From an uncultured Clostridium sp. (GTDB lineage: Bacteria; Bacillota; Clostridia; Lachnospirales; Lachnospiraceae), in assembly GCA_958349075.1 (NCBI GenBank), contig CATWBR010000106.1, positions 1-11,302 of the forward strand: 11,302 bases of DNA, read 5' to 3'. Below are positions 1-11,231 of this stretch, one piece after another. Position 1 is the first letter of the stretch, and each line of letters starts with the position of its first letter. The position numbers and the translations under genes were made by a program. The notes below the pieces were generated by a model that searched no databases, had not been told where the DNA came from, and was given only the letters and a program-made list of their open reading frames with translations.

Positions 1-56
1 CCGCGAGGTGTTTTCACGCGTTTTTGCGTGAAAATCCCGAGTTACACGGCGCGAAC
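1..56 (+). repeat. Left copy of flanking inverted repeat (~57 bp)
   Basis: This segment matches the reverse complement of 11175-11231 almost base for base, with three substitutions and one single-base length difference in the hairpin loop. It contains a perfect 9-bp stem, TTTTCACGC at 11-19 and GCGTGAAAA at 26-34, around the loop GTTTTT. It starts at the first base of the window, so the match may extend further left. There is no T-run after the stem, so it is not a canonical intrinsic terminator on the + strand. It ends about 12 bases before the promoter of the first regulator. It is probably one copy of a dispersed intergenic palindromic element; no transposase lies between the two copies. 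Confidence 0.85.
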
Positions 57-167: not shown

Positions 168-938
168 ATGAAGGAAGAAAAAGACAAATCAAAGAATCTT
201 CAGACGGTGGAGCGCGCACTGGATGTGCTGTACCTGTTTCATAAGTACAATGGAATTACACTGAGCTTTGTGGCTGAGGAGATGAATATGAGTACCACGG
301 TGGCCTACCGCCTCTTGTATACACTGGCAGACAGCGGCTTTCTAAGACAGGAGAAAGCCAGCAAAAAATATTATCTGGGGGAGAAGAGCCTGCTGTTGGG
401 CTACAGGGCGATTCAGTCCCAGGAGCTTGAGAAGACGGCATATCCAATTATGAAAAACCTGGTGGAAAAATGCGGACTGGGAGTAATCTTAACCTCCTGT
501 GCGGATATGCAGAGCCTGTGTGTGGAAAAAATAGATGTGGAGGATGATCTGCAGCTATCGATGAGGGTGGGAGGGATATACCCGATCCATAAGGGGGCGT
601 CGAACCGGCCGCTGCTTGCATATATGGAGCGGGAGAAGGCCGGTGCCTACATTGATTCCCTGGATATCACGGATGAAGAGAAGGAAGCTATGGGGCACGA
701 GATGGAGGAAATCAGGAAAAGAGGTTACGATCATACGCAGGGGCTGCTGACGCCGGGACTTTTCTCCATCGGATTTCCGGTGTTCGGAATGAGAAACAAG
801 CTGATCTTCTGTATCAGCATCGGCGGCTACTGTTTTGACATGAAAGAGGAGCAGCGTCTGCTCTACCTCCATGAGACGAGAAAAGCGGCGGCGGAGCTGA
901 GCCGTCTGTTCGGTGCTGAGGAATATCCGGGAGACTGA
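168..938 (+). CDS. IclR-family transcriptional regulator (paralog 1)
   Basis: This 256-residue protein has IclR-family size and layout. A winged helix-turn-helix spans about residues 11-75, with the HTH core near 30-53 (ITLSFVAEEMNMSTTVAYRL) and a wing ending in YYLGEKS. A ligand-binding IclR domain follows, about 85-250. In the ligand domain the usual GK-type turn reads HKGASNRPLLA. The start ATG is preceded by GGGGAGAAGG at good spacing. It aligns without gaps to the regulator at 1155-1922, about 68% identical by my count, with residues 123-151 identical in both. The two differ mostly at residues 25-28, 152-175 and scattered ligand-domain positions, including Cys111, which is Ser in the paralog. 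It is monocistronic, with its own promoter and terminator. It probably controls the catabolic operon and itself, responding to a small-molecule effector; whether it activates or represses cannot be told. Confidence 0.93.
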   Translation: MKEEKDKSKNLQTVERALDVLYLFHKYNGITLSFVAEEMNMSTTVAYRLLYTLADSGFLRQEKASKKYYLGEKSLLLGYRAIQSQELEKTAYPIMKNLVEKCGLGVILTSCADMQSLCVEKIDVEDDLQLSMRVGGIYPIHKGASNRPLLAYMEREKAGAYIDSLDITDEEKEAMGHEMEEIRKRGYDHTQGLLTPGLFSIGFPVFGMRNKLIFCISIGGYCFDMKEEQRLLYLHETRKAAAELSRLFGAEEYPGD

Positions 939-952
939 TATTGACCATCCGG

Positions 953-997
953 GCGGGATGAAGGAACGTGAAATGCGTTCTTCATCCCGCTTTTTTT
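953..997 (+). terminator. Rho-independent terminator after first IclR gene
   Basis: The stem GCGGGATGAAGGAACG pairs with CGTTCTTCATCCCGC, with one bulged G and a short TGAAATG-type loop, and is followed at once by seven T residues at 991-997. It begins 15 bases after the stop codon. It separates the first regulator from the second regulator and its operon. Confidence 0.92.
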
Positions 998-1066
998 ATG
1001 AAAGAATTATTGCAAAAGTAACAAAAAACGAGGCTGTATTTTGTATAATTATTCAAAAAAAACAGA

Positions 1067-1095
1067 TTGACAGAAATGCTTTAGTGATTTATCAT
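1067..1095 (+). promoter_or_regulatory. Predicted sigma-A promoter of the IclR2-catabolic operon
   Basis: TTGACA at 1067-1072, a 17-base spacer, and TATCAT at 1090-1095 make a near-consensus promoter in an AT-rich stretch. A second possible -10, TATAAT in the TTGTATAATT run near 1041-1050, lacks a good -35. The sequence around the -35 (GATTGACAGA) and at the -10 (TATCATA) matches the promoter in front of the first IclR gene. It should drive the six-gene operon 1155-7346. Confidence 0.65.
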
Positions 1096-1154: not shown

Positions 1155-1922
1155 ATGAGCGGAAGCAGTGAAAAATCGAAAGGCCTCCAGACGGTGGAGC
1201 GGGCGCTGGATGTACTGTACCTGTTTTGTGAGTGCGAGGGAATCACCCTGAGTTTTGTGGCTGAAAGGCTCAATATGAGTCCTGCCGTAGCCTACCGTCT
1301 GCTGTATACGCTGACCGACAGCGGATTCCTGCGCCAGGAGAGGGCGGGGAAACGGTATTACCTGGGTGAAAAAAGCCTGCTGCTTGGTTATCAGGCGATA
1401 CGCTCCCAGGAGCTCAGGCAGATAGCATATCCTGTTATGGAGAAGCTGAAACAAAAGTGCGGCCTGGATGTTTTTCTCACGGTTAGTGTGGATATGCAGA
1501 GTCTTTGTGTGGAAAAGCTTGATGTGGAGGATGATCTGCAGCTTTCAATGCGGGTAGGAGGAATCTATCCCATCCACAAGGGAGCATCCAACCGCCCGCT
1601 TCTGGCATTTGCAGATGAGCAGGCAAGGGAGGGCTACCTTTTATCCCTGAAGCTTGGTGAGAATGAGAGAAAGAAGCTTGAGGGCGAGATGGAAGAGGTG
1701 AGAACGAGAGGATATGACTATACAAGAGGCCTCCTTTCACCGGGGCTTTTTGCCATCGGAATTCCCGTATTTGGGATGAGGAACAGACTGGCGGGCTGCA
1801 TCAGTGTCGGTGGATACAGCGCCGGGATGAAAGAGGAAAAATTCGACTCCTATCTGAAGGAGACCATGGCTGCGGCTGCGGAGATAAGCCGGCTGTCGGG
1901 AGCCGAAGAACAGGCACTGTAA
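1155..1922 (+). CDS. IclR-family transcriptional regulator (paralog 2)
   Basis: This 255-residue IclR regulator is the close paralog of the protein at 168-938. The winged HTH is at about 11-75 (core ITLSFVAERLNMSPAVAYRL) and the ligand-binding domain at about 85-250, including the KGASNRPLLA turn. GAGGTGA lies 4-5 bases before the ATG. It is the first gene of the operon: only 26 bases, containing TAAGGAGGA, separate it from the DUF917 gene, so it is cotranscribed with the enzymes it likely controls. The residue at the place of Cys111 of paralog 1 is Ser, and residues 152-175 differ strongly, so the two may sense different ligands or form mixed oligomers. IclR proteins usually act as dimers or tetramers. 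The effector is unknown. Confidence 0.93.
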   Translation: MSGSSEKSKGLQTVERALDVLYLFCECEGITLSFVAERLNMSPAVAYRLLYTLTDSGFLRQERAGKRYYLGEKSLLLGYQAIRSQELRQIAYPVMEKLKQKCGLDVFLTVSVDMQSLCVEKLDVEDDLQLSMRVGGIYPIHKGASNRPLLAFADEQAREGYLLSLKLGENERKKLEGEMEEVRTRGYDYTRGLLSPGLFAIGIPVFGMRNRLAGCISVGGYSAGMKEEKFDSYLKETMAAAAEISRLSGAEEQAL

Positions 1923-1948
1923 AGTTTAAGAGGAATAAGGAGGATATC

Positions 1949-3046
1949 ATGGCTAAACTTAATTTGACAATGGAACATCTGGAGGCTGCGGTTTTAGGAG
2001 GCTGCGTTCTGGGCGGAGGCGGAGGCGGCTCCATGGAAAAGGGAATGAGAACGGCAAGACTGGGACTTTTGCTGGCTCCCGTAACGCTGGTGGATCCGGA
2101 AGATATGGATGAGGACGCGATTCTTGTGAACGTATCAAATGTAGGGGCGCCGTCCGCTACGGAAGCCTGGGTGGATCCGATGGATAACGGGCGCGTTGTC
2201 ACCGTGCTCTGTGAAAAGATGGGAATTCAGGCAGACGGTATCATTACCAACGAGGCGGGAGGAAGCGCATCGGTCAACGGCTGGCTTCAGAGCGCTCTGT
2301 TAGGCATTCCTCTGGTAGACGCTCCATGTAACGGCAGAGCGCATCCGACCGGCGTGATGGGCTCCATGGGACTTCACCGGATTCCGGATTACTATTCCTA
2401 CCAGGCGGCAGTCGGCGGAAAACGCGAGAATGGAAGAAGGATCGAGATGGCGGCGGGAGGCAGCCTGAGCAGCGCTGCCAGACTTGTCCGGGAGGCAGCC
2501 GTGGAGGCGGCAGGCCTTGTGGCGGTCGCACGAAATCCGGTTACTCTGGCCTACGCAAAAGAAAACGGAGCCTGTGGCGCCGTGAAGCAGGCGATTGAAC
2601 TGGGACAGGCCATGATAGCCGCGAGACAGGAGGGAGCCGATGCAGTCCTGAAAGCGGTCTGTGATTTCCTGGGAGGAAATATCATTGCAAGGGCAAAAGT
2701 AGAGCAGGTGGACTTGAAATGCAGCGGAGGATTCGACACGGGTGTTGTGAAGGTAGGGGATGTGGAACTGACTTTCTGGAATGAATATATGACGGCGGAA
2801 AAAGATGGCGAAAGGATTGCGACGTTCCCTGATCTTATCATGACCTTTGACGCGGAGACAGGAATTCCTTTCACTTCAGCCGAGGTGAAAGAGGGGATGA
2901 CGGCGGCGGTTCTCGTGGTAGACAGGAGGAAAATCAAGCTGGGAGCCGGCATGAAGGATCCGGAATTATTTGTTCCATGTGAGAAAGCAGTGGAGAAGGA
3001 GATGATCTCCTATGTTTTTCCTGAGGCGGAATGCAACAGCAAATAA
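1949..3046 (+). CDS. DUF917 / S-methyl-thiohydantoin desulfurase family protein
   Basis: At 365 residues this is typical for DUF917 proteins (Pfam PF06032, now named for S-methyl thiohydantoin desulfurase). The N-terminal domain opens with a family-typical glycine loop, LGGGGGGSMEKG at 21-32. It continues with NVSNVGAPSATEAW (61-74), NEAGGSASVNGW (101-112) and PLVDAPCNGRAHPTG (121-135), the equivalent of the conserved GRA-x-P segment. The C-terminal domain (about 245-355) includes DVELTFWNEYM (271-281) and a cell-binding-free, soluble profile. No signal peptide or membrane span is seen. The family occurs beside hydantoinase-like and amino-acid catabolic genes, and one branch desulfurises S-methyl thiohydantoins. 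The actual substrate here is unknown, and the presence of Cys127 beside the GRA motif may mark a distinct subfamily. TAAGGAGGA sits 4 bases before the ATG. It is followed 27 bases later by the transporter gene, in the same operon. Confidence 0.85.
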   Translation: MAKLNLTMEHLEAAVLGGCVLGGGGGGSMEKGMRTARLGLLLAPVTLVDPEDMDEDAILVNVSNVGAPSATEAWVDPMDNGRVVTVLCEKMGIQADGIITNEAGGSASVNGWLQSALLGIPLVDAPCNGRAHPTGVMGSMGLHRIPDYYSYQAAVGGKRENGRRIEMAAGGSLSSAARLVREAAVEAAGLVAVARNPVTLAYAKENGACGAVKQAIELGQAMIAARQEGADAVLKAVCDFLGGNIIARAKVEQVDLKCSGGFDTGVVKVGDVELTFWNEYMTAEKDGERIATFPDLIMTFDAETGIPFTSAEVKEGMTAAVLVVDRRKIKLGAGMKDPELFVPCEKAVEKEMISYVFPEAECNSK

Positions 3047-3073
3047 TACGAAAGAGGATGGTGGGTTAATAGT

Positions 3074-4660
3074 ATGAAAGAAGAAAACAAGAATGTTAAC
3101 AAAGTGAAAAACGAATACATATCGGCATTTGAACCGCAGATTATCGGAATTGGCGTTCTTCTGGCAATCCTTTCCGCAATCATTTGTATGCAGATCATCG
3201 GAAAAGTCGGCGTGACTCCGAATACTTCCCTGATTGGAGCAATCTTTGCCATGCTGCTTGCGAGGGTACCGCTTGCATCCATGACAAAGTTCCGTTCACT
3301 CGAAAGACAGAACCTGCTTCAGACAATCGTGTCCGGAGCCGGATTCTCAGCGGCAAACTGCGGATTTATTGCAGTCGGTATTTTATACGGAATCGGTAAG
3401 GCTGAGTACATCATGCCGATGGCAGTCGGATGTATCGTCGGAACCGGAATTTCCGTTATCGTGGTTGGAAGACTTTTCGACTCCAAGATATTCCCGGCAC
3501 GCGGAGCATGGCCTCCCGGAGTTGCCACGGCCAGCGCTATCCAGGCGGGAGATGAGGGCGGAAAGAAGGGAAAACGACTGCTGGAAGGTCTTGCCCTCGG
3601 CGTAGTCGGAAGCTATTTCAAGATTCCGATGGCCGGAATCGGTATCGTATTTATTGCAAACATTTTCTCCATGGCGGGCCTTGGAATCGGTTTAATACTT
3701 AGAGGTTACTCCACCGTTATTTTCCGGGGATTCAACATGGGGGCCTCAAATATCCCGCAGGGCATTATGATTGGAGCCGGCGGTGTTGCACTAATCCAGT
3801 CTCTTCTTATTATCTTTAAAGACAAAAAGAAGACAGGTCCTGCACAACCGGTTATGGATGACGTGACGGTTTCGGCGGGAGCGGCCAAGAAGACGATTTT
3901 CACAAGTTTCGGAGCCTATGCACTCGGTGCAATGGCTACTGCGGCGGTGACAGGCATCATCGGAGGAATGGCCCCGGGAAAGATTGTCCTCTGGGTAATC
4001 TGGGCGGCATTTTCTTCAACCGTAGCCATGATGCTCGTCGGTATGGCAGCCATGCATTCCGGCTGGTTCCCGGCCTTTGCCATAACGACTATCTTCATGA
4101 CACTCGGAATTTTCATGGGCTTTGAACCTCTTCCCCTGGCAGTGCTTACAGGATACATCGGCGCGGCAGGACCGTGTTTTGCAGATATGGGATACGACTT
4201 AAAGACAGGATGGATTCTGCGCGGTGAAGGCAAAGACCGTGAACGTGAACTCTACGGCAGAAAACAACAGGTTATCATTGAGTTCATCGGTGTTGTAATC
4301 GGTATTGTGGTTGTAATGTTCTTTGCCATGATGTTTATGAAACAGGATATCATGCCTCCGATCAGCAAGGTGTTTGCAACGGCCGTATCCGCAGGAGCCG
4401 ACGCGGCTATCATAAAGGAACTCCTCATCTGGGCCGTACCGGGAGCAATCATCCAGCTTATTTTTGGGAACAAGATGGTGGGCGTGCTTTTTGCCACAGG
4501 ACTTCTTTTAAACAACCCGACCTACGGGATCGCAGTATTAATCGCAGTTGTAGTCCGTATGATTTTCGGTACGGAATTCATGGAAGTAAGAGATGCCGGT
4601 TTTATCGCGGGAGACGGACTTTTTGGATTCTTCTCCAACGTACTCAGGGCATTCTTCTGA
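3074..4660 (+). CDS. OPT/YSL-family membrane transporter
   Basis: This 528-residue protein is almost entirely hydrophobic, with about 12-14 membrane segments (for example 22-42, 52-66, 82-107, 112-133, 186-208, 226-248, 277-297, 304-327, 333-350, 402-421, 452-478, 482-498). A short charged N-tail and a lysine-rich cytoplasmic loop near 249-274 are also present. The segment GAWPPGVATASAIQAGD at 144-160 resembles the conserved FPSGTATA-type motif of OPT proteins, which import oligopeptides or metal-peptide chelates by proton symport. It is shorter than many bacterial OPT proteins (600-700 residues), in keeping with a compact subfamily. The ribosome site is mediocre: GGTGGG 8 bases before the ATG, or AGAGG 16 bases before. 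Operon context makes it the likely importer of the substrate handled by the neighbouring enzymes. Direction and substrate are inferred. Confidence 0.78.
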   Translation: MKEENKNVNKVKNEYISAFEPQIIGIGVLLAILSAIICMQIIGKVGVTPNTSLIGAIFAMLLARVPLASMTKFRSLERQNLLQTIVSGAGFSAANCGFIAVGILYGIGKAEYIMPMAVGCIVGTGISVIVVGRLFDSKIFPARGAWPPGVATASAIQAGDEGGKKGKRLLEGLALGVVGSYFKIPMAGIGIVFIANIFSMAGLGIGLILRGYSTVIFRGFNMGASNIPQGIMIGAGGVALIQSLLIIFKDKKKTGPAQPVMDDVTVSAGAAKKTIFTSFGAYALGAMATAAVTGIIGGMAPGKIVLWVIWAAFSSTVAMMLVGMAAMHSGWFPAFAITTIFMTLGIFMGFEPLPLAVLTGYIGAAGPCFADMGYDLKTGWILRGEGKDRERELYGRKQQVIIEFIGVVIGIVVVMFFAMMFMKQDIMPPISKVFATAVSAGADAAIIKELLIWAVPGAIIQLIFGNKMVGVLFATGLLLNNPTYGIAVLIAVVVRMIFGTEFMEVRDAGFIAGDGLFGFFSNVLRAFF

Positions 4661-4690
4661 TACCCGAGTATCATTGATATAGCAGATTAT

Positions 4691-4704
4691 GAGGCCGGGG
4701 CCTC
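4691..4704 (+). other. Intercistronic hairpin between transporter and DUF1177 genes
   Basis: GAGGCCGGGGCCTC is a 5-6-bp GC-rich stem with a 2-4-base loop in the 79-base gap after the transporter stop codon. A smaller stem, GATAC/GTATC, lies at 4659-4672. There is no T-run, so neither should terminate transcription. Such hairpins can set segment-specific mRNA stability or processing, which could give the membrane protein and the soluble enzymes different dosage. Function is inferred. Confidence 0.4.
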
Positions 4705-4739
4705 AGAAAGAGAAAAATTATAACCGGGAGGAGAACGTA

Positions 4740-5687
4740 ATGTTATTAAAACAGTTAATTGAATTATATGATTTATTAGACAGCAGTACGGCCAGCGGGG
4801 AAGCGGTGAAAGAATATTTCTGCGGCATCAATGAAAATGCCGATGTGACCGTCTATGAACTGAAGGGAGCCCGCGGGAAGACCGATATGATCCGGATCCG
4901 CGTCCGCGGTACAAACGGCAAGTCGGCCGGAAAAGATGCCCCTACGATGGGAATTCTCGGAAGGCTCGGAGGCTTGGGAGCAAGGCCGGAGCGGCTTGGC
5001 TTTGTGTCTGACGGCGACGGCGCCCTGACTGCCCTGGCAGTGGCCGCAAAGCTTCTGGATATGCAGAAAAAGGGAGATTACCTGGACGGCGACGTGGTGA
5101 TATCCACCCACATCTGCCCCAATGCGCCGACCCAGCCTCACAAACCTGTGGCATTTATGGGCTCTCCGGTCGATATGGCTCAGGTAAATAAGGAAGAAGT
5201 GAACGGCGAACTGGATGCCATTCTTTCCGTGGATACGACAAAGGGCAACCGGATTATCAACCACCGCGGGTTTGCCATCTCCCCGACGGTCAAGGAGGGT
5301 TACATCCTGAAGGTAAGCGATGATTTACTGGATTTAATGCAGATTACAACGGGAAAACTGCCGCAGGTATTTGCTCTGTCCATGCAGGATATTACACCTT
5401 ACGGCAACGATGTTTACCATTTAAACAGCATTCTTCAGCCGGCTACGGCCACGGATGTGCCGGTGGTGGGAGTTGCCATAACGACTGAGGCGGCGGTACC
5501 GGGATGTGCGACGGGAGCAAGCCACATTACGGATTTAGAGGAGGCGGCCCGCTTTATGCTTGAGGCCGCAAAGGCATACGGACGCGGAGAATGCAGCCTG
5601 TATGACGAGGAGGAATACGCAAGGCTAAGGGGACTTTACGGTTCCATGAAGCGTCTCCAGACACTCGACGGGAAAGAGGTTCGGTAG
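4740..5687 (+). CDS. DUF1177 family protein, possible metal-dependent hydrolase
   Basis: I place the start at 4740 (MLLKQLIELYD...), because GGGAGGAG at 4726-4733 sits 6 bases before it. An in-frame ATG at 4689 would add 17 residues and lacks a ribosome site. The resulting 315-residue soluble protein matches the DUF1177 family, whose function is not established. Visible motifs are VSDGDGALTALA (89-100), ISTHICPNAPTQPHKP (121-136), SVDTTKGNRI (163-172) and ASHITDLEEAARF (260-272). The order Asp-rich turn, His/Cys strand, SVDTT strand and late His-x-x-x-Leu-Glu recalls the metal-site order of M20/M42 peptidases, without the usual Glu-Glu pair. A hydrolase or deacylase role is therefore an inference. 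It lies between the transporter and AroM genes, with an 18-base gap to the latter. Confidence 0.8.
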   Translation: MLLKQLIELYDLLDSSTASGEAVKEYFCGINENADVTVYELKGARGKTDMIRIRVRGTNGKSAGKDAPTMGILGRLGGLGARPERLGFVSDGDGALTALAVAAKLLDMQKKGDYLDGDVVISTHICPNAPTQPHKPVAFMGSPVDMAQVNKEEVNGELDAILSVDTTKGNRIINHRGFAISPTVKEGYILKVSDDLLDLMQITTGKLPQVFALSMQDITPYGNDVYHLNSILQPATATDVPVVGVAITTEAAVPGCATGASHITDLEEAARFMLEAAKAYGRGECSLYDEEEYARLRGLYGSMKRLQTLDGKEVR

Positions 5688-5705
5688 CGGAGAGAGGAGA
5701 AGGCG

Positions 5706-6374
5706 ATGAAAATAGGGGCGATTACCATCGGGCAGGCTCCCAGGGAGGATGTGACCTGCGATGTACTTCCGTTTCTGGGGGAAGGGGTTACCCTGCTGCA
5801 GGCGGGAGGCCTGGACGGACTTACCAGAGAAGAGATTGAGGCGTTTGCGCCGGGACCGGGTGACTATGTGCTTATCTCCAAACTCCATGACGGGACGTCG
5901 GTTGTATTTGCCGAAAAATACATCCTGCCGCGGCTCCAGTCCTGTATTGAACGGCTGGAGGAACAGGGAGTTAAGCTCATCCTGTTCTTCTGCACCGGCA
6001 GGTTTCCGGACTGTTTCCGGAGCCGTGTCCCTCTGATTTTCCCCTGTGACCTGCTGAACGCCGTTGTGCCGGTTCTCACTCCGAATTCCAGCATCGGCGT
6101 GATTACGCCAAAGGCGGAACAGATAGGCCAGGCCACCGGAAAATGGCAGGAACTGGTGAAGCATGTGAAGGTGCTGGCGGCTTCCCCATACGGCGATCCG
6201 GTTGAGCTTACGCGGGCGGCGGAGCAGATGCGGGGGGAGCCGGTAGACCTGATTGTCCTGGACTGTATTGGATATAATATATCCATGAAACAAGAGATGG
6301 AGGCGCTCAGCGGAAAGCCGGTTGTGCTGGGAAGAACACTCCTGGCCAGGATTGCGGGTGAGATTGCCGGGTAA
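5706..6374 (+). CDS. AroM-family protein, racemase-like
   Basis: This 222-residue protein matches the AroM family in length (E. coli AroM is about 225) and opening, IGAITIGQAPREDV (3-16). AroM is coexpressed with shikimate kinase in E. coli, but its activity is unknown, and no aromatic biosynthesis gene is present here. Two cysteines, Cys96 in ILFFCTGRFP and Cys187 in LIVLDCIGYN, sit at positions and in strand-Cys-turn contexts like the catalytic pair of Asp/Glu and hydantoin racemases (about 82 and 194 in proteins of about 230). SSIGVITP (128-135) and KPVVLGRTLLARIAG (204-218) also resemble segments of that fold. In this operon a racemase or epimerase-like role on an amino-acid derivative is plausible but unproven. 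AGGAGAAGG before the ATG is a strong ribosome site. Confidence 0.82.
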   Translation: MKIGAITIGQAPREDVTCDVLPFLGEGVTLLQAGGLDGLTREEIEAFAPGPGDYVLISKLHDGTSVVFAEKYILPRLQSCIERLEEQGVKLILFFCTGRFPDCFRSRVPLIFPCDLLNAVVPVLTPNSSIGVITPKAEQIGQATGKWQELVKHVKVLAASPYGDPVELTRAAEQMRGEPVDLIVLDCIGYNISMKQEMEALSGKPVVLGRTLLARIAGEIAG

Positions 6375-6404
6375 TGCAAGTAGAGAAGAGAGGCAGCAGA
6401 TAAA

Positions 6405-7346
6405 ATGGATATTATCAATTGTGCAAAAAAGATTTTGACCGGATGTATGGATGTGAAACCGGAAGAAACAGTGCTGGTTGTGACGGACGACAACAAAGCC
6501 GTCATAGGACAGGCCTTTTATGAGGCGGCAAAGCAGCTCGGCTGTGAGGCGCTGCTGATGACGATGAAGGAGAGGCAGTACTCGGGCCAGGAGCCTCCGA
6601 AACCGGTGGCGGACGCCATGCTGAATGCAGACGTGGTTCTCTGCCCGACGGCAAAATCCCTGACCCATACGAATGCAAAGATTGCGGCGGCAAAGAACGG
6701 AGCCCGTATCGGGACCATGCCAAATATTGCGGAAGAAATGCTCTATCAGGGAGCCATGACCGCCGATTACGCCCGCGTCGAGAAACTGACCGGACAGGTG
6801 ACGGAGCTTCTGACGAGTGCAAAGACTGCCAGGATCGAGAAAGAAGGCTATGTCCTGACCATTGATCTGGAGGGCAGAAAAGGCGTGCCAAGTACGGGAG
6901 TCTACAGGACGAAGGGAGACGCCGGAAACCTGCCGTCGGGGGAGGCATACATCGCCCCGGTTGAGAACGGTTCCAACGGAGAAATGAAGATAGACGGCTC
7001 CATGGTGGGCCTTGGCAAACTGGAGGAGCCGATCTTTGTGAAGGTGGAGCAAGGAAAGCTCAGGGAAATCCGGGGAAAGAGAAGTGAGGAACTGTCCGTA
7101 CTTCTGGCCAACGAAAACAACGCCACACTCGGCGAACTTGGAATCGGAACGAATGAAAAAGCCATTCTCTGCGGTGTGATTCTGGAGGATGAAAAGGTGT
7201 ACGGGACGGTCCATATCGCTTTCGGAACCAACGTGTCCTTCGGCGGAACGGTGAAAGCGGACTGCCATATGGATGGGATTATCCTGAAACCGGATCTGTA
7301 TCTGGATGATTGTCTGGTGATTAAGGGCGGGGAGTTTCAGATTTAA
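6405..7346 (+). CDS. M29-like metallo-aminopeptidase family protein
   Basis: This 313-residue protein resembles the short branch of the aminopeptidase T/M29 family (COG2309-like), which also includes the iron enzyme 2,5-dihydroxypyridine dioxygenase. An N-terminal Rossmann-like domain (about 1-135) contains ETVLVVTDDN and ADVVLCPT. The C-terminal part carries candidate metal ligands in the family order: Glu180 in NLPSGEA, Glu244 in LGELGIGTN, His270 in GTVHIAFG, and His288 with Asp290 in DCHMDG. All ligands appear intact, so it should be an active metalloenzyme. Peptide-bond hydrolysis and ring-opening oxygenation are both possible by homology; the anaerobic host context favours hydrolysis. 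The ribosome site AGAGG is rather far (12 bases) from the ATG. It is the last gene of the operon. Confidence 0.82.
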   Translation: MDIINCAKKILTGCMDVKPEETVLVVTDDNKAVIGQAFYEAAKQLGCEALLMTMKERQYSGQEPPKPVADAMLNADVVLCPTAKSLTHTNAKIAAAKNGARIGTMPNIAEEMLYQGAMTADYARVEKLTGQVTELLTSAKTARIEKEGYVLTIDLEGRKGVPSTGVYRTKGDAGNLPSGEAYIAPVENGSNGEMKIDGSMVGLGKLEEPIFVKVEQGKLREIRGKRSEELSVLLANENNATLGELGIGTNEKAILCGVILEDEKVYGTVHIAFGTNVSFGGTVKADCHMDGIILKPDLYLDDCLVIKGGEFQI

Positions 7347-7401: not shown

Positions 7402-7452
7402 AAAAATACTGGTTTGCAAGGGAGGATGCTCCTTTACAAACCGGTATTTTTT
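7402..7452 (+). terminator. Long terminator at end of catabolic operon, possibly bidirectional
   Basis: AAAAATACTGGTTTG (7402-7416) pairs with CAAACCGGTATTTTT (7437-7451) with a single G-T pair. The loop itself folds, because AAGGGAG pairs with CTCCTTT. The A-run before and T-run after the stem allow termination from either side. It lies 55 bases after the M29-like stop codon and separates this operon from the exporter operon. Confidence 0.88.
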
Positions 7453-7494
7453 GTATCCGTCCTCTTTTTTTCTGGGAGAAACGTCCAAAAATCT

Positions 7495-7606: not shown

Positions 7607-9085
7607 ATGTGGCATAAAAGAAAAAAAGATGAGAATGAAAACATGTACGATGAAATGTATGATGAAACTGCTTCTTCGGAAGAGGCTGAAAAAAATTTAG
7701 AGGAGAATACGGAAACAGCCGCAGGGAAAGAGTCTGATGAAAAAATCCAGCCGGATTTCGCCGAGGAGAAAAATGTGGCGGTGGTCGAGCAGGAGCTGGA
7801 AGAATATCTGAAGGAAGATCACAGCGGCGGCAAGAAGAAAAAGAAAAAATTCGGCCACTGGAGCAAAAAGAAAAAGCTGGTTGTGGGCGGCTGCGCCGTA
7901 CTCCTGGTGTTCATCGGAGGCCGCGTTGTCCTGGGAGGCAATAAGCAGGTGGCTCCCGTTGTGGCTTCCATGCCTCTGGCAAAGGGCGATGTGACCGAAG
8001 TGCTGAGCCTCAGCGGCCCAGTTTCTGGTACGGAGAGTGCGGATGTGGTTTCTAATCTTCACGCGGAAGTGCTTCAGATTATGGTCCGGGAAGGCGACCG
8101 GGTGGAAAAGGGACAGACACTGGCTGTCATCGACAGCAGCGATGCCCGTAAAGCAGTCGATATTGCACAGAATTCCTACGATCTTGCCGTCAGCGAATAT
8201 AACGAAAATATCAGGGATACGCAGCACAAATATGAAAAGGCGGTTCAGGATTATAATACGGCAAAGCTGAATTACGACAGGAACAGGGTCCTGTTTGACG
8301 CAGGCGATATCTCATCGGCAGATTTGGAGGCGGCCAGCAACGCGCTTAAGGATGCCGCCAGGGAGAAAGACTCCTATACCGTGGAAAAAGGCAGGGCTCT
8401 TCCCGATAAATCCTATGAATTAAAGGTGAAATCGGCACAGTTTGAACTGGATCAGAAGAAGACGGATCTGGAAAATGCGGAGGTTAAAAGCCCGATCACA
8501 GGCACGGTAGTCCGTGTCAATTCCAAAGTGGGTCAGTTCGCAGATAAACCCGAGGATGAAAAACCGATGTTTATCGTCGAGAACCTGGATAATCTGGAGA
8601 TGGAGATTGCCGTCAGCGAATATTCTATTTCTAAGGTGAAAGTGGGCCAGAAGGCACAGATCGACGCCGACATTTTAAACGGAGTAAGCCAGGAGGGAGA
8701 GATCATCTCGATTTCCCCGACCGGTGAGGAAAAGGGCGGCGGCTCAACGGAACGTGTGGTTCCCGCAACAATCCAGATTGAAGGCGGGGCATCGAACGGG
8801 CTGATTGCCGGTATCACAGCCAAGGCATCCCTGGTAACGGGAGAGGCCAAAGGAGTGTTCACGGTTCCGCAGACCGCCATTGTGACCTCCGAGGACGGCA
8901 GCATCAACGTGGCTTCCGTTGACGCCTCCACGAACACAATACATATGATTCCGGTGACAACGGGAGTAGAGAGCGATCTTGACGTGGAAATCAATCCTGT
9001 CGAGGAAGGCGCGCTCACAGAAGGAATGAAGATTGTCATTTCTCCGGCAGGACTGACGGAAGGAATGGCGGTGACGACCCGATGA
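7607..9085 (+). CDS. HlyD/MacA-type membrane-fusion adaptor of ABC exporter
   Basis: This 492-residue protein is the adaptor of a Gram-positive MacAB/YknXYZ-like exporter. One membrane span at about 91-110 (LVVGGCAVLLVFIGGRVVLG) anchors it. Outside lie the first half of a lipoyl-like domain (about 138-176, AEVLQIMVREGDRVEKGQTL), a charged coiled-coil hairpin (about 180-290) and the second lipoyl half (AEVKSPITGTVVRVNSKVGQ, 291-310). A beta-barrel (about 325-415) and a membrane-proximal domain (about 416-490) complete it. The cytoplasmic N-tail is unusual: about 75 mostly acidic, Glu-rich residues followed by two lysine runs (76-81, 87-90). GGGGAG precedes the ATG. The ATPase gene follows after about 75 bases. 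Export of an antimicrobial or peptide-like compound is typical of the family; the cargo is not identifiable. Confidence 0.88.
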   Translation: MWHKRKKDENENMYDEMYDETASSEEAEKNLEENTETAAGKESDEKIQPDFAEEKNVAVVEQELEEYLKEDHSGGKKKKKKFGHWSKKKKLVVGGCAVLLVFIGGRVVLGGNKQVAPVVASMPLAKGDVTEVLSLSGPVSGTESADVVSNLHAEVLQIMVREGDRVEKGQTLAVIDSSDARKAVDIAQNSYDLAVSEYNENIRDTQHKYEKAVQDYNTAKLNYDRNRVLFDAGDISSADLEAASNALKDAAREKDSYTVEKGRALPDKSYELKVKSAQFELDQKKTDLENAEVKSPITGTVVRVNSKVGQFADKPEDEKPMFIVENLDNLEMEIAVSEYSISKVKVGQKAQIDADILNGVSQEGEIISISPTGEEKGGGSTERVVPATIQIEGGASNGLIAGITAKASLVTGEAKGVFTVPQTAIVTSEDGSINVASVDASTNTIHMIPVTTGVESDLDVEINPVEEGALTEGMKIVISPAGLTEGMAVTTR

Positions 9086-9160
9086 GAGCAGTTGGAATGA
9101 GAAAAGTTCCGGTGAGAACGGCACGGTCGGGAACGGAACAGAATGAGGGAGGCGCAGACA

Positions 9161-9961
9161 ATGTTTGACAGAGAAGAACTCCGGAGCAAAATCAGAAAAA
9201 GGCTGGACCGGAAAGCGGAGCTGCCGGAAGTCGATACGGATGAGTTGATTAAAATTGTCAACCTCTGCAAGGTGTATGACACGGGCGCGGTCAAGGTAAT
9301 CGGCCTTAAGAATATTAACCTTACCATCAGGAAAGGCGAATTTGTGGCAATCATGGGCCAGTCCGGTTCGGGAAAATCCACGCTGATGAACATTATCGGC
9401 TGTCTTGACCGGCCGGTAATGGGGCATTACTATCTGGACGGAATCGACATTGCCGCACTGAACCAGGATCAGCTCTCCAGGATCAGGAATCAGAAGATAG
9501 GATTTGTATTCCAGTCCTTTAACCTGATATCCAGGACATCGGCGGAAAAAAATGTGGAACTTCCTATGACATATGCGCATCTGCCGAAAAAACTCCGGCA
9601 TGAGCGCGCCGTGGAGCTGCTCGGACGTGTGGGCCTTGGCGAGAGGACGGAGCACATGCCCAATGAGATGTCGGGCGGACAGAGGCAGAGGGTGGCAATT
9701 GCCAGAGCCCTGGCCAACGAGCCGCCTCTGATACTGGCGGATGAGCCGACCGGAAACCTGGATACGGCTTCGTCGGTTGAGATTATGGAACTCTTTTCCC
9801 AGCTTCACAAAGAGGGAGCCACAGTGGTTGTAGTCACCCATGAGGAAGATATAGCGGCGTTTACGGAGCGGATTATCCGGTTCCGCGACGGCGAAATCGT
9901 AAGTGATGTGAGAAATAAGAAAAAAGAGGATCCGGAGAGGGAGGTGGCGCCATGCTGCTAG
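9161..9961 (+). CDS. ABC exporter ATP-binding protein (MacB/LolD type)
   Basis: I choose the ATG at 9161, because GAGGGAGG at 9145-9152 is 8 bases upstream. An in-frame ATG at 9143 would place the ribosome site inside the gene and add six residues. The 266-residue protein has all ABC ATPase motifs: Walker A GQSGSGKST (66-74), Q-loop Gln118 in FVFQSFNL, signature SGGQRQ (171-176), Walker B LILADE (190-195), D-loop near GNLD, and switch His227 in VVTHEED. The extra N-terminal stretch of about 30 charged residues before the usual start of the domain is a little longer than in most relatives. The stop overlaps the permease start by 10 bases (ATGCTGCTAG), which suggests coupled translation of the two subunits. 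It powers the adaptor-permease complex. Confidence 0.93.
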   Translation: MFDREELRSKIRKRLDRKAELPEVDTDELIKIVNLCKVYDTGAVKVIGLKNINLTIRKGEFVAIMGQSGSGKSTLMNIIGCLDRPVMGHYYLDGIDIAALNQDQLSRIRNQKIGFVFQSFNLISRTSAEKNVELPMTYAHLPKKLRHERAVELLGRVGLGERTEHMPNEMSGGQRQRVAIARALANEPPLILADEPTGNLDTASSVEIMELFSQLHKEGATVVVVTHEEDIAAFTERIIRFRDGEIVSDVRNKKKEDPEREVAPCC

Positions 9962-11172
9962 AAAATATGTTCATGGCTTTTTCAGCCCTCAGGGCCAACA
10001 AAATGAGGTCGTTTTTAACAATGCTCGGCATTATCATCGGCATCGGTTCCGTTATCTCCATTGTATCCATCGGGGACACGATGAGGGGAATGTTTTCAAG
10101 CCTTTACCAGGATATCGGTATCACCCAGGCGTATCTGGGGATCGGCTACTGGATTGACGACACCAGGCAGAGCGATTACTTTACAATGGACGAATTAAGC
10201 CGTATTAAGTCGGTCTTCGGAGACAAAATCAGCTACATAGACAGCGCCATGTCAACCTCGGCCGACGCCATCGCCGGACGCAATAAGATTAAATTCAATT
10301 TCGAGGGAATCGACTATAATTACAACGACGTACAGCCCGTCGACATTCTTTACGGCAGATATTTAAATGAGGGCGATGTCAAGGCGCGGAGAAACAATGC
10401 GGTTCTGGAGGTGGGCAGCGCCAGGATGCTGTTCGGCACGGATAACGCCGTGGGCCGTACATTCAGAACCCAGCTCTATGGAAATGTCCAGGAATTTACG
10501 GTGGTGGGCGTCTATGAAAAGAAGCAGAGCGCCTTCCAGAAATTGATGATGGGCACTCCGAGCGACAAGGGAAGCGCATATATACCCTGGACTCTTTTAA
10601 CCTGGCCCAATGATTATTTTTATTACTGCCATTTCTTCGCGGATACGACGATGAATGAAGCGGAGCTGAATTCGTTTTACGATGATCTTCTGACCTATGT
10701 TGCAAAGACAAAGGGCCGTGAAAAATCGGAATTTTATATGGAGACGGCCATCAGCCAGATGGGGCAGGTTGACTCCATGATGGCGGGACTTTCCATGGCG
10801 GTGGGCGGCATTGCCGCAATCTCTCTGATCGTAGGCGGCATCGGAATCATGAATATCATGCTGGTATCCGTGACGGAGAGGACAAGGGAGATCGGTATCC
10901 GAAAAGCGCTGGGAGCAAGAACCAGGGATGTCCTGATCCAGTTCCTTACGGAATCTGCGATTCTCTCGGCCTGCGGAGGACTGATTGGAATACTTTTGGG
11001 CGGGGGCCTCGTCACCCTGGTTGGAGCCGTAATCGGCGTGCCGACTATTGTCAAACCGGGAGTAATCCTTGTGGCAGTGACATTCTCGGCCGTTGTCGGA
11101 ATCTTTTTCGGCCTCTATCCTGCGTCGAAAGCGGCGAAATCCGACCCCATTGACGCACTGCGGTACGAATAG
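9952..11172 (+). CDS. ABC exporter permease (MacB/FtsX type)
   Basis: This 406-residue permease has the MacB layout. Membrane segment 1 lies at about 21-40 and a large extracytoplasmic MacB-type domain at about 45-275. A C-terminal FtsX domain follows, with segments at about 283-305, 330-352 and 370-388. The cytoplasmic loop TERTREIGIRKALGAR (308-323) is the family hallmark that contacts the ATPase. The tail SKAAKSDPIDALRYE is also typical. GGGAGG lies just before the ATG, which overlaps the ATPase gene. With only four spans per chain the active unit should be a dimer, together with the ATPase and adaptor. The right repeat copy begins 2-3 bases after the stop, with no separate terminator before it. 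Confidence 0.93.
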   Translation: MLLENMFMAFSALRANKMRSFLTMLGIIIGIGSVISIVSIGDTMRGMFSSLYQDIGITQAYLGIGYWIDDTRQSDYFTMDELSRIKSVFGDKISYIDSAMSTSADAIAGRNKIKFNFEGIDYNYNDVQPVDILYGRYLNEGDVKARRNNAVLEVGSARMLFGTDNAVGRTFRTQLYGNVQEFTVVGVYEKKQSAFQKLMMGTPSDKGSAYIPWTLLTWPNDYFYYCHFFADTTMNEAELNSFYDDLLTYVAKTKGREKSEFYMETAISQMGQVDSMMAGLSMAVGGIAAISLIVGGIGIMNIMLVSVTERTREIGIRKALGARTRDVLIQFLTESAILSACGGLIGILLGGGLVTLVGAVIGVPTIVKPGVILVAVTFSAVVGIFFGLYPASKAAKSDPIDALRYE

Positions 11173-11174
11173 GA

Positions 11175-11231
11175 GCTCGCGCCGTAGAACTCGGGATTTT
11201 CACGCAAAATACGCGTGAAAACACCTCGCGG
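11175..11231 (-). repeat. Right copy of flanking inverted repeat (~57 bp)
   Basis: The reverse complement of this segment matches 1-56, with three substitutions near the inner end and one extra base in the loop. The stem TTTTCACGC (11197-11205) with GCGTGAAAA (11213-11221) is perfect and encloses a 7-base loop, AAAATAC. It starts two bases after the permease stop codon and so lies in the 3' untranslated region of the exporter mRNA, where it may protect or delimit the 3' end. No T-run follows the stem directly. Confidence 0.85.

What the first reader, a model, noticed from the sequence alone, without database searches (positions are those of the whole stretch)
1949..7346. Undescribed catabolic module: DUF917, OPT transporter, DUF1177, AroM and M29-like enzyme
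One promoter and tight spacing join a peptide-type importer to four soluble proteins, three of them from families with poorly defined or unknown activity. The fold-level hints (hydantoin desulfurase family, racemase-like cysteines, two metal-hydrolase-like proteins) point to import and stepwise breakdown of a modified, cyclic or D-configured amino-acid or peptide derivative. As far as I know no pathway has been assigned to this combination.
Basis: partly seen in the sequence, partly recalled or inferred. Interest (0 to 1): 0.72.

Follow-up and report, generated by a model that had tools for sequence, protein, structure and literature searches.

The report
Modified-dipeptide import and breakdown operon
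A bacterial gene cluster that recurs in several bacterial groups and in a salt-loving archaeon, and that probably imports a small modified, perhaps ring-shaped, dipeptide and cuts it into usable amino acids; its central enzyme (DUF1177) has no assigned function, and part of the gene set was already noticed in a 2024 paper.

Summary
The five genes are real, intact and in the stated order. The operon probably starts at an IclR regulator (1155) and ends at a strong terminator (7405-7455). In 392 genomes of one order AroM passes its cut-off in 5, within 300 bases of DUF1177 in 4. A haloarchaeon keeps DUF917-DUF1177-AroM-M29. Importers (OPT, Dpp-type ABC, NCS1) and dipeptidases (M29-like, PepV, PepE) swap. 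Seven loci carry a cyclodipeptide-oxidase-like pair, all with OPT and AroM. DUF1177 models as an M20/M28 fold, AroM as a hydantoin/allantoin racemase fold; the module's DUF917 is nearest thiohydantoin desulfurases but far below their cut-offs. Best reading: uptake and hydrolysis of a modified, probably cyclic, dipeptide-like amide; substrate unproven. A 2024 paper already reported DUF917, AroM, racemases, OPT and peptidases around cyclodipeptide oxidases, so the set is only partly new; the DUF1177 hub and the oxidase-free version are the additions.

The parts
1067..1095 (+). promoter-like site TTGACA-17-TATCAT before IclR2
   Evidence: consensus scan, 11 of 12 matches; total number of sites not above shuffles
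1155..1922 (+). IclR-type regulator, probable first gene of the operon (tandem paralogue of 168-938)
   Evidence: Pfam PF01614 86.6 bits, PF09339 44.8 bits; 26-base gap to DUF917; IclR hits also in L025, L031, L035, L061, L079 and IclR genes annotated beside DUF1177 in Klebsiella, Sodalis and Paenibacillus plasmids
1949..3046 (+). DUF917 / S-Me-THD-like protein, module-type clade
   Evidence: Pfam PF06032 76 bits, PF20906 96 bits; NCBIfam desulfurase models 290 and 287 bits, below cut-offs 450 and 440; 46% identical to the archaeal module protein, 26% to the HyuA-linked type
3074..4660 (+). OPT-family importer
   Evidence: Pfam PF03169 53.6 bits
4740..5687 (+). DUF1177 protein, hub of the module; predicted M20/M28-like metallopeptidase fold
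5706..6374 (+). AroM protein, hydantoin/allantoin/Asp-Glu racemase fold with two invariant cysteines (C96, C187)
6405..7346 (+). M29-like aminopeptidase/amidase
   Evidence: Pfam PF02073 45 bits; profile match to 2,5-dihydroxypyridine dioxygenase 7cn3 E 2.7e-9 and PepS 4icq E 1.3e-4; E180, E244, H270, H288, D290 invariant in 12
7405..7455 (+). intrinsic-terminator-like hairpin closing the operon
   Evidence: fold -24.8 kcal/mol, z -6.5, followed by a T run
948..1000 (+). intrinsic-terminator-like hairpin separating the first IclR gene
   Evidence: fold -27.3 kcal/mol, z -6.0, followed by a T run

Best explanation
It is a catabolic operon for a small modified, probably cyclic, dipeptide-like amide (2,5-diketopiperazine, or a dipeptide carrying a hydantoin-like ring), built around DUF1177. 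Proposed working: an IclR regulator senses the compound; OPT imports it (in other species a Dpp-type ABC or NCS1 importer may do so); DUF917, a relative of enzymes named as acting on thiohydantoins, and/or DUF1177, a hydrolase-fold protein of the M20/M28 type, opens or unmasks the cyclic amide; AroM, with a racemase fold and two cysteines, epimerises an alpha-carbon so that D- or mixed forms become usable; the M29-like metalloenzyme cuts the resulting linear dipeptide into amino acids. Some relatives add a cyclodipeptide oxidase before ring opening. Shown: gene content, order, co-occurrence, fold predictions, invariant residues, exchange of importers and dipeptidases. Inferred: every reaction, their order and the substrate.
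For: Co-occurrence: 81 DUF1177 loci (80 fetched plus window): AroM 48, DUF917 35, M29-like 34, OPT 29, PF01177 racemase 28 (25 of these over 100 bits); all four core partners 23. AroM is directly downstream (300 bases or less, same strand) in 39 of the 76 loci with room for it, 22 of 49 clusters at 85% identity. Background: AroM passes its cut-off in 5 of 392 genomes of one order, within 300 bases of DUF1177 in 4 of the 5; an M29-like match over 100 bits is in 1 of 116 genomes, the one with the whole module. Same order DUF917-DUF1177-AroM-M29 in the haloarchaeon Salinigranum. Dipeptides: importers OPT (29 loci) or Dpp-type ABC parts (18 loci, one of them also with OPT); PepV in L031 (NF005591 509.7 over 435; a second PepV model, TIGR01886, not met, 326 against 632) and PepE in Klebsiella (327 over 156); PepE also annotated in Sodalis. 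Cyclic: CDOA/CDOB-like pair in 7 of 81 loci, one a fusion, all 7 with OPT and AroM; AlbB-like genes in 2 of 392 genomes, both about 3 kb from DUF1177; a HyuA-type gene within 10 kb of DUF1177 in L055, L063, L072, L074 and in Planococcus, with NCS1 in L055, L074 and Planococcus. Folds.
Against: 27 of 81 DUF1177 loci have none of the four partners; 7 of 11 DUF1177 genes in the 392-genome sample have no AroM in the about 3.8-kb stretch. 5 of 6 genomes with DUF917 and 7 of 8 with OPT in the 116-genome sample are without DUF1177; five of those seven OPT genes (49-54% identical to the window's, closer than the 42% of the module OPT of G001) were looked at, and the neighbours annotated told nothing about peptides. 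No oxidase, HyuA or separate PF01177 racemase in the window itself. The 35 DUF917 loci include four with a HyuA-type gene, whose DUF917 is of the other clade in the three compared (L055, L063, L074), and one 34-bit partial hit (L067). The DUF1177 fold match has no sequence support (hhalign probability 0.4%), and my by-eye reading puts an arginine (R75) where the first metal histidine of M28 would be, so catalysis is not shown. The 80 loci were picked by similarity to the window and are partly related.
Confidence: 0.5

Rival explanations
1. Hydantoin/ureide (allantoin-like) catabolism: the module handles five-membered cyclic ureides rather than dipeptides; DUF917 acts on a (thio)hydantoin, AroM racemises hydantoins, a hydrolase removes a carbamoyl group.
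For: AroM fold nearest hydantoin and allantoin racemases; DUF917 clade nearest thiohydantoin desulfurases; PucR-type regulators in 34 of 81 loci, CN_hydrolase in 12 (10 over 100 bits) and NCS1 permease in 5; the authors of PMC11055893 favour hydantoin/allantoin-like substrates (sections 6 and 12 read).
Against: Importers are mostly peptide-type; PepV and PepE dipeptidases sit inside the module in some species; HyuA-type genes in only 4 of 81 loci and not in the window; the NCBIfam desulfurase cut-offs are not met.
Confidence: 0.2
2. Damaged-protein scavenging: the substrate is an aspartyl-type dipeptide (succinimide, isoaspartyl or D-aspartyl) from aged protein; racemases restore L-Asp, DUF917/DUF1177 open the imide, the peptidase finishes.
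For: PepE, recalled as specific for Asp-X dipeptides, stands where the M29-like enzyme would be in Klebsiella and Sodalis; PF01177 Asp/Glu/hydantoin-type racemases in 28 of 81 loci, 25 over 100 bits; an aspartoacylase-like gene in the archaeal module.
Against: PepV (a broad dipeptidase, recalled) in another module; the cyclodipeptide oxidase link is unexplained; the two racemase proteins tested (L025, L108) match no NCBIfam racemase equivalog.
Confidence: 0.12
3. General dipeptide scavenging operon with accessory genes of unrelated function, kept together only by co-regulation; no modified or cyclic substrate.
For: Peptide importers plus peptidases; DUF1177 found in many loci without the partners.
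Against: Does not explain the frequent coupling of DUF1177 with racemase-fold AroM (39 of 76 loci directly adjacent) nor the module-type DUF917 clade shared with an archaeon.
Confidence: 0.13

Closest known systems
Non-CDPS cyclodipeptide-oxidase (CDO) gene clusters (PMC11055893, Nat Commun 2024)
   Same: DUF917, AroM, PF01177 racemase, OPT, peptide ABC importers and peptidases; Blautia named as a holder (section 6). L003, L005, L011, L032, L040, L043, L046 look like this kind.
   Different: The window has no CDO gene; DUF1177 is not named there (the paper is not among those holding the term); dipeptidase exchange and the DUF1177-centred view are not in the two sections read.
Thiohydantoin / S-methyl-thiohydantoin desulfurase (NCBIfam NF058529, NF058532)
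   Same: Near full-length homology to the window DUF917 (287 and 290 bits).
   Different: Scores far below both equivalog cut-offs; the ergothioneine pathway in which such enzymes act is recalled, and no other gene of it was recognised in the window's annotation.
Hydantoin / allantoin / Asp-Glu racemase superfamily (PF01177; 2eq5, 3qvk, 5lg5)
   Different: 15-16% identity; activity not shown for AroM (stated in PMC11055893).
M20/M28 metallopeptidases (1amp, 1xmb, 5k8m; clan name MH recalled)
   Different: 8-15% identity, no profile match to neighbouring M20 proteins, first metal histidine apparently replaced (by-eye reading).
HyuA / DUF917 / NCS1 hydantoinase-type cluster (Planococcus plasmid)
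   Same: Cyclic-amide-type gene set lying beside DUF1177.
   Different: Its DUF917 is of another clade (26% to the window).

Membership tests
DUF1177 (PF06675) | curated Pfam score | tested here: met
   459 bits, cut-off 25, residues 41-309
AroM (PF07302 / NF007788) | curated scores | tested here: met
   263 over 23.8; 205.6 over 198
Cys-Cys racemase superfamily | racemase fold | tested here: met
Cys-Cys racemase superfamily | two catalytic cysteines | tested here: met
   C96 and C187 invariant in 18 sequences and aligned with a Cys in each of two stretches of the neighbouring PF01177 proteins (hhalign, probability 57%); catalytic role recalled
Cys-Cys racemase superfamily | racemase activity | not testable with these tools
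   needs an enzyme assay
S-methyl thiohydantoin desulfurase (NF058532) | equivalog score 450 | tested here: not met
   290.4 bits
thiohydantoin desulfurase (NF058529) | equivalog score 440 | tested here: not met
   287.1 bits
S-Me-THD-like (DUF917) Pfam families PF06032/PF20906 | both domains over cut-off | tested here: met
   76 and 96 bits, cut-off 27 each
OPT transporter (PF03169) | curated Pfam score | tested here: met
   53.6 over 25.8
Peptidase M29 (PF02073) | curated Pfam score | tested here: met
   45.1 over 27, but only profile positions 183-351 of 406
Peptidase M29 (PF02073) | Glu/His/Asp metal ligands | tested here: inconclusive
   E180, E244, H270, H288, D290 invariant in 12; their role as ligands is recalled and not checked on a structure
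2,5-dihydroxypyridine dioxygenase (NicX) | His-His-Asp iron site (recalled) | tested here: not met
   CHxD kept, but E244 aligns with a His of the dioxygenase (alignment)
M20/M28 metallopeptidase (for DUF1177) | fold | tested here: met
M20/M28 metallopeptidase (for DUF1177) | sequence-profile relation and complete metal ligand set | tested here: inconclusive
   hhalign probability 0.4% against neighbouring M20 proteins; D91, D165, H227 conserved in at least 97% of 82 sequences, R75 at the expected first His by eye
CDO gene cluster | CDOA and CDOB genes | tested here: not met
   none in the window with either profile; the window is one contig piece, its wider genome is not held

The most novel reading that the evidence does not exclude
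DUF1177 founds a new enzyme family: a cytosolic ring-opening hydrolase on the M20/M28 fold that, with a thiohydantoin-desulfurase-like DUF917 partner and the AroM racemase, breaks down cyclic (including D-configured) dipeptides in gut anaerobes, other bacteria and haloarchaea, giving a missing catabolic route for diketopiperazines and a role for the non-biosynthetic cyclodipeptide oxidases.
Probability: 0.17. Interest if true: 0.82.

Novelty: new variant of a known kind. Interest (0 to 1): 0.5.

Why it matters
DUF1177 has thousands of homologues (7,998 scored, a capped list), yet the one paper in the library that holds the term 'DUF1177' concerns DUF1996 proteins (listing only). AroM, whose gene was sequenced beside aroL in E. 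coli in 1986 (a reference seen in PMC11055893), is called not experimentally characterised there. The survey ties both to one small, testable pathway and gives the orphan cyclodipeptide oxidases of anaerobes a possible catabolic setting. PMC3852281 (2013) states that it remains unclear which enzymes hydrolyse diketopiperazines (passages), so an assay of these proteins would bear directly on that question, if it is still open.

Tried and rejected
Tried without result: the window's own genome is not held; solved-structure sequence searches find nothing at E 0.001 for DUF1177, AroM or OPT. OPT genes of the same subfamily in five genomes without DUF1177 were fetched for a substrate clue; ten neighbouring proteins were annotated (kinases, P-type ATPase, FtsX permease and so on) and told nothing. 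DUF1177 against neighbouring M20 proteins by profile: no match, so the fold claim rests on the model alone. Nine paper searches were made. The thiohydantoin-route search found no paper at 4 of 5 terms. Judged by titles and abstract beginnings, those bearing on the question are PMC11055893 (sections 6 and 12 read, plus passages), PMC3852281 (passages) and PMC11760959 (listing only). PMC12915319 and PMC9503626 were seen as passages, PMC4738358 and PMC6061476 in listings only. Supplementary files were not read.

Considered and rejected: purine (allantoin) catabolism as first choice, because the peptide importers and PepV/PepE fit it poorly; peptidoglycan-peptide recycling (considered from knowledge only, not tested); the MacA/MacB exporter as part of the module (260-base gap and hairpin); the flavoprotein between M29 and racemase in Salinigranum as a CDO (51 bits only; my reading of its sequence is another type of nitroreductase). 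L063's CDOA hit (50 bits) was dropped from the oxidase count for the same reason.

Limits: my first ORF caller lost the window's AroM and M29 genes to a longer antisense ORF; counts quoted are from the frame-complete rescan, where any hit at E 1e-8 counts: weak ones are three racemase hits of 38-49 bits (L032, L065, L077), two CN_hydrolase hits (L042, L050), one DUF917 (L067) and some PucR and SBP5 hits. AlbA is only one of many nitroreductases matched by the L046 protein (third of 62); the AlbB-like partner is what marks the pair, and in L032 it scores only 53 bits. The Fisher value 0.0004 for oxidase with OPT (7 of 29 against 0 of 52) ignores relatedness.


Full report
WHAT IS THERE. The window encodes, on the + strand, two tandem IclR regulators (168-938, 1155-1922), DUF917 (1949-3046), OPT (3074-4660), DUF1177 (4740-5687), AroM (5706-6374), an M29-like protein (6405-7346), then a MacA-like and two MacB-like proteins (7607-11172). 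Hairpins with T-runs follow the first IclR gene (948-1000) and the last module gene (7405-7455), and the gene gaps from IclR2 to M29 are 18 to 79 bases. So the likely operon is IclR2-DUF917-OPT-DUF1177-AroM-M29, 1155-7346. The promoter-like site at 1067-1095 is only a consensus match.

IS THE ASSOCIATION REAL. With the window that makes 81 loci, scanned with profiles built mostly from them: AroM within 10 kb in 48, DUF917 35, M29-like 34, OPT 29, PF01177 racemase 28 (25 over 100 bits), PucR 34, Dpp-type binding protein and permease 17 each; AroM, DUF917, M29 and OPT all present in 23, none of the four in 27. Several contigs are short, so true absences may be fewer. AroM directly downstream on the same strand: 39 of 76 loci with room; by 85%-identity clusters 22 of 49. 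The strict order DUF917-DUF1177-AroM-M29 occurs in 17 of 81; the window is not among them, because OPT lies between DUF917 and DUF1177.

BACKGROUND. In 392 genomes of the order of G001 (the genome of the Blautia locus L003), DUF1177 occurs in 10 (11 genes) and AroM over its cut-off in 5. In 4 of those 5 AroM lies within 300 bases of DUF1177 by profile bounds (G001, G376, G317, G050; not G042). An AlbB-like profile finds 2 of 392 genomes, both about 3 kb from DUF1177. One (G001) supplied a row of that profile; the other (G317) seemingly did not, though it looks like the genome of L032, which had been fetched by DUF1177. In a 116-genome sample DUF917 occurs in 6 genomes, OPT in 8, and an M29-like match over 100 bits in 1; only G001 has any of these three together with DUF1177. 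Against the reading: 7 of the 11 DUF1177 genes have no AroM in the about 3.8-kb stretch held.

ACROSS TAXA. Annotated plasmids show the module beyond the Firmicutes (7 records hold DUF1177; 6 were read). Klebsiella pneumoniae and Sodalis: IclR-OPT-DUF1177-AroM-PepE-racemase. The archaeon Salinigranum rubrum: ABC transporter-DUF917-DUF1177-AroM-aminopeptidase, then racemase and an aspartoacylase-like gene. Paenibacillus: IclR-ABC transporter with an ArgE/DapE-type protein-DUF1177-AroM. Planococcus: NCS1-DUF917-HyuA on one side of DUF1177, HyuA/HyuB on the other. Niallia, unannotated there, carries PucR-racemase-OPT-DUF917-DUF1177-AroM-M29 by my profiles.

WHAT THE EXCHANGES SAY. The importer changes (OPT, Dpp-type ABC, NCS1), and so does the peptidase: M29-like in 34 of 81 loci; a PepV in L031 (NF005591 509.7 over cut-off 435, though TIGR01886 is not met) and PepE in Klebsiella (327 over 156). 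M20 amidohydrolases and ArgE/DapE types sit in the ABC versions. Unrelated dipeptidases in similar positions suggest that a linear dipeptide is an intermediate (inference). A CDOA/CDOB-like pair follows or flanks the module in 7 of 81 loci: in L046 the nitroreductase part matches AlbA 8uc3_A at E 7.7e-20 (other nitroreductases score alike) and the small part AlbB 9exv_C at E 6.5e-4; in L005 the two are fused. All seven have OPT and AroM, six of the seven DUF917.

PRIOR WORK. PMC11055893 (sections 6 and 12 read) analysed 274 oxidase clusters. It reported DUF917, AroM, PF01177 racemases, OPT and peptide ABC transporters as enriched, and peptidases in many, in those without a cyclodipeptide synthase, and proposed hydantoin/allantoin-like substrates, purine metabolism or secondary metabolites. 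It says DUF917 and AroM had not been experimentally characterised; NCBIfam now names desulfurase equivalogs related to DUF917. The present survey reaches the same set from DUF1177, shows that the oxidase is optional, and favours catabolism of a modified dipeptide because of the importers and dipeptidases. PMC3852281 (passages) says the enzymes that hydrolyse diketopiperazines were unclear. One library paper holds the term DUF1177 (listing only).

VERDICT. The pathway reading (modified, probably cyclic dipeptide) is the best-supported but unproven; the hydantoin/ureide reading is the main rival.

Noticed in passing
window 1-54 and 11177-11231: Near-perfect inverted repeats (94-96% complementary) at both window ends; perhaps copies of a dispersed repeat at which a metagenome contig broke. 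The AroM query's identical database entry is on contigs of at most 11,345 bases.
   Followed up: partly
window 168-938 and 1155-1922: Tandem IclR paralogues, 73% identical over 300 nt, each behind a TTGACA...TATCAT box.
   Followed up: no
window 7607-11172: MacA-like adaptor and MacB-like ATPase and permease downstream, separated from the module by a terminator-like hairpin.
   Followed up: no
L010:10931-11764, L017:12607-13440, L035:12534-13457, L075:2147-2986: A 277-307 aa protein family beside the module, hits in 6 of 81 loci; the one member tested has no Pfam match (protein 7).
   Followed up: partly
L005:13276-14148: Fused CDOA-CDOB-like protein of 290 aa beside the module in an uncultured Blautia.
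   Followed up: yes
L108 (Klebsiella pneumoniae plasmid pRHB26-C08_2) 7559-12966: The module lies on a plasmid typed as conjugative, between transposase genes, so it may move horizontally.
   Followed up: no
L088:329-3088: On a 3-kb contig of G028 a DUF917 and an M29-like protein (183 bits) flank a binding protein (SBP_bac_3) without DUF1177 in the stretch held.
   Followed up: no
L021, L026, L034, L069, L073 (L069 and L073 Clostridioides difficile): Another DUF1177 setting: DUF3100 (PF11299) protein, a small protein (163 aa in L021) and an M20-type amidohydrolase.
   Followed up: no
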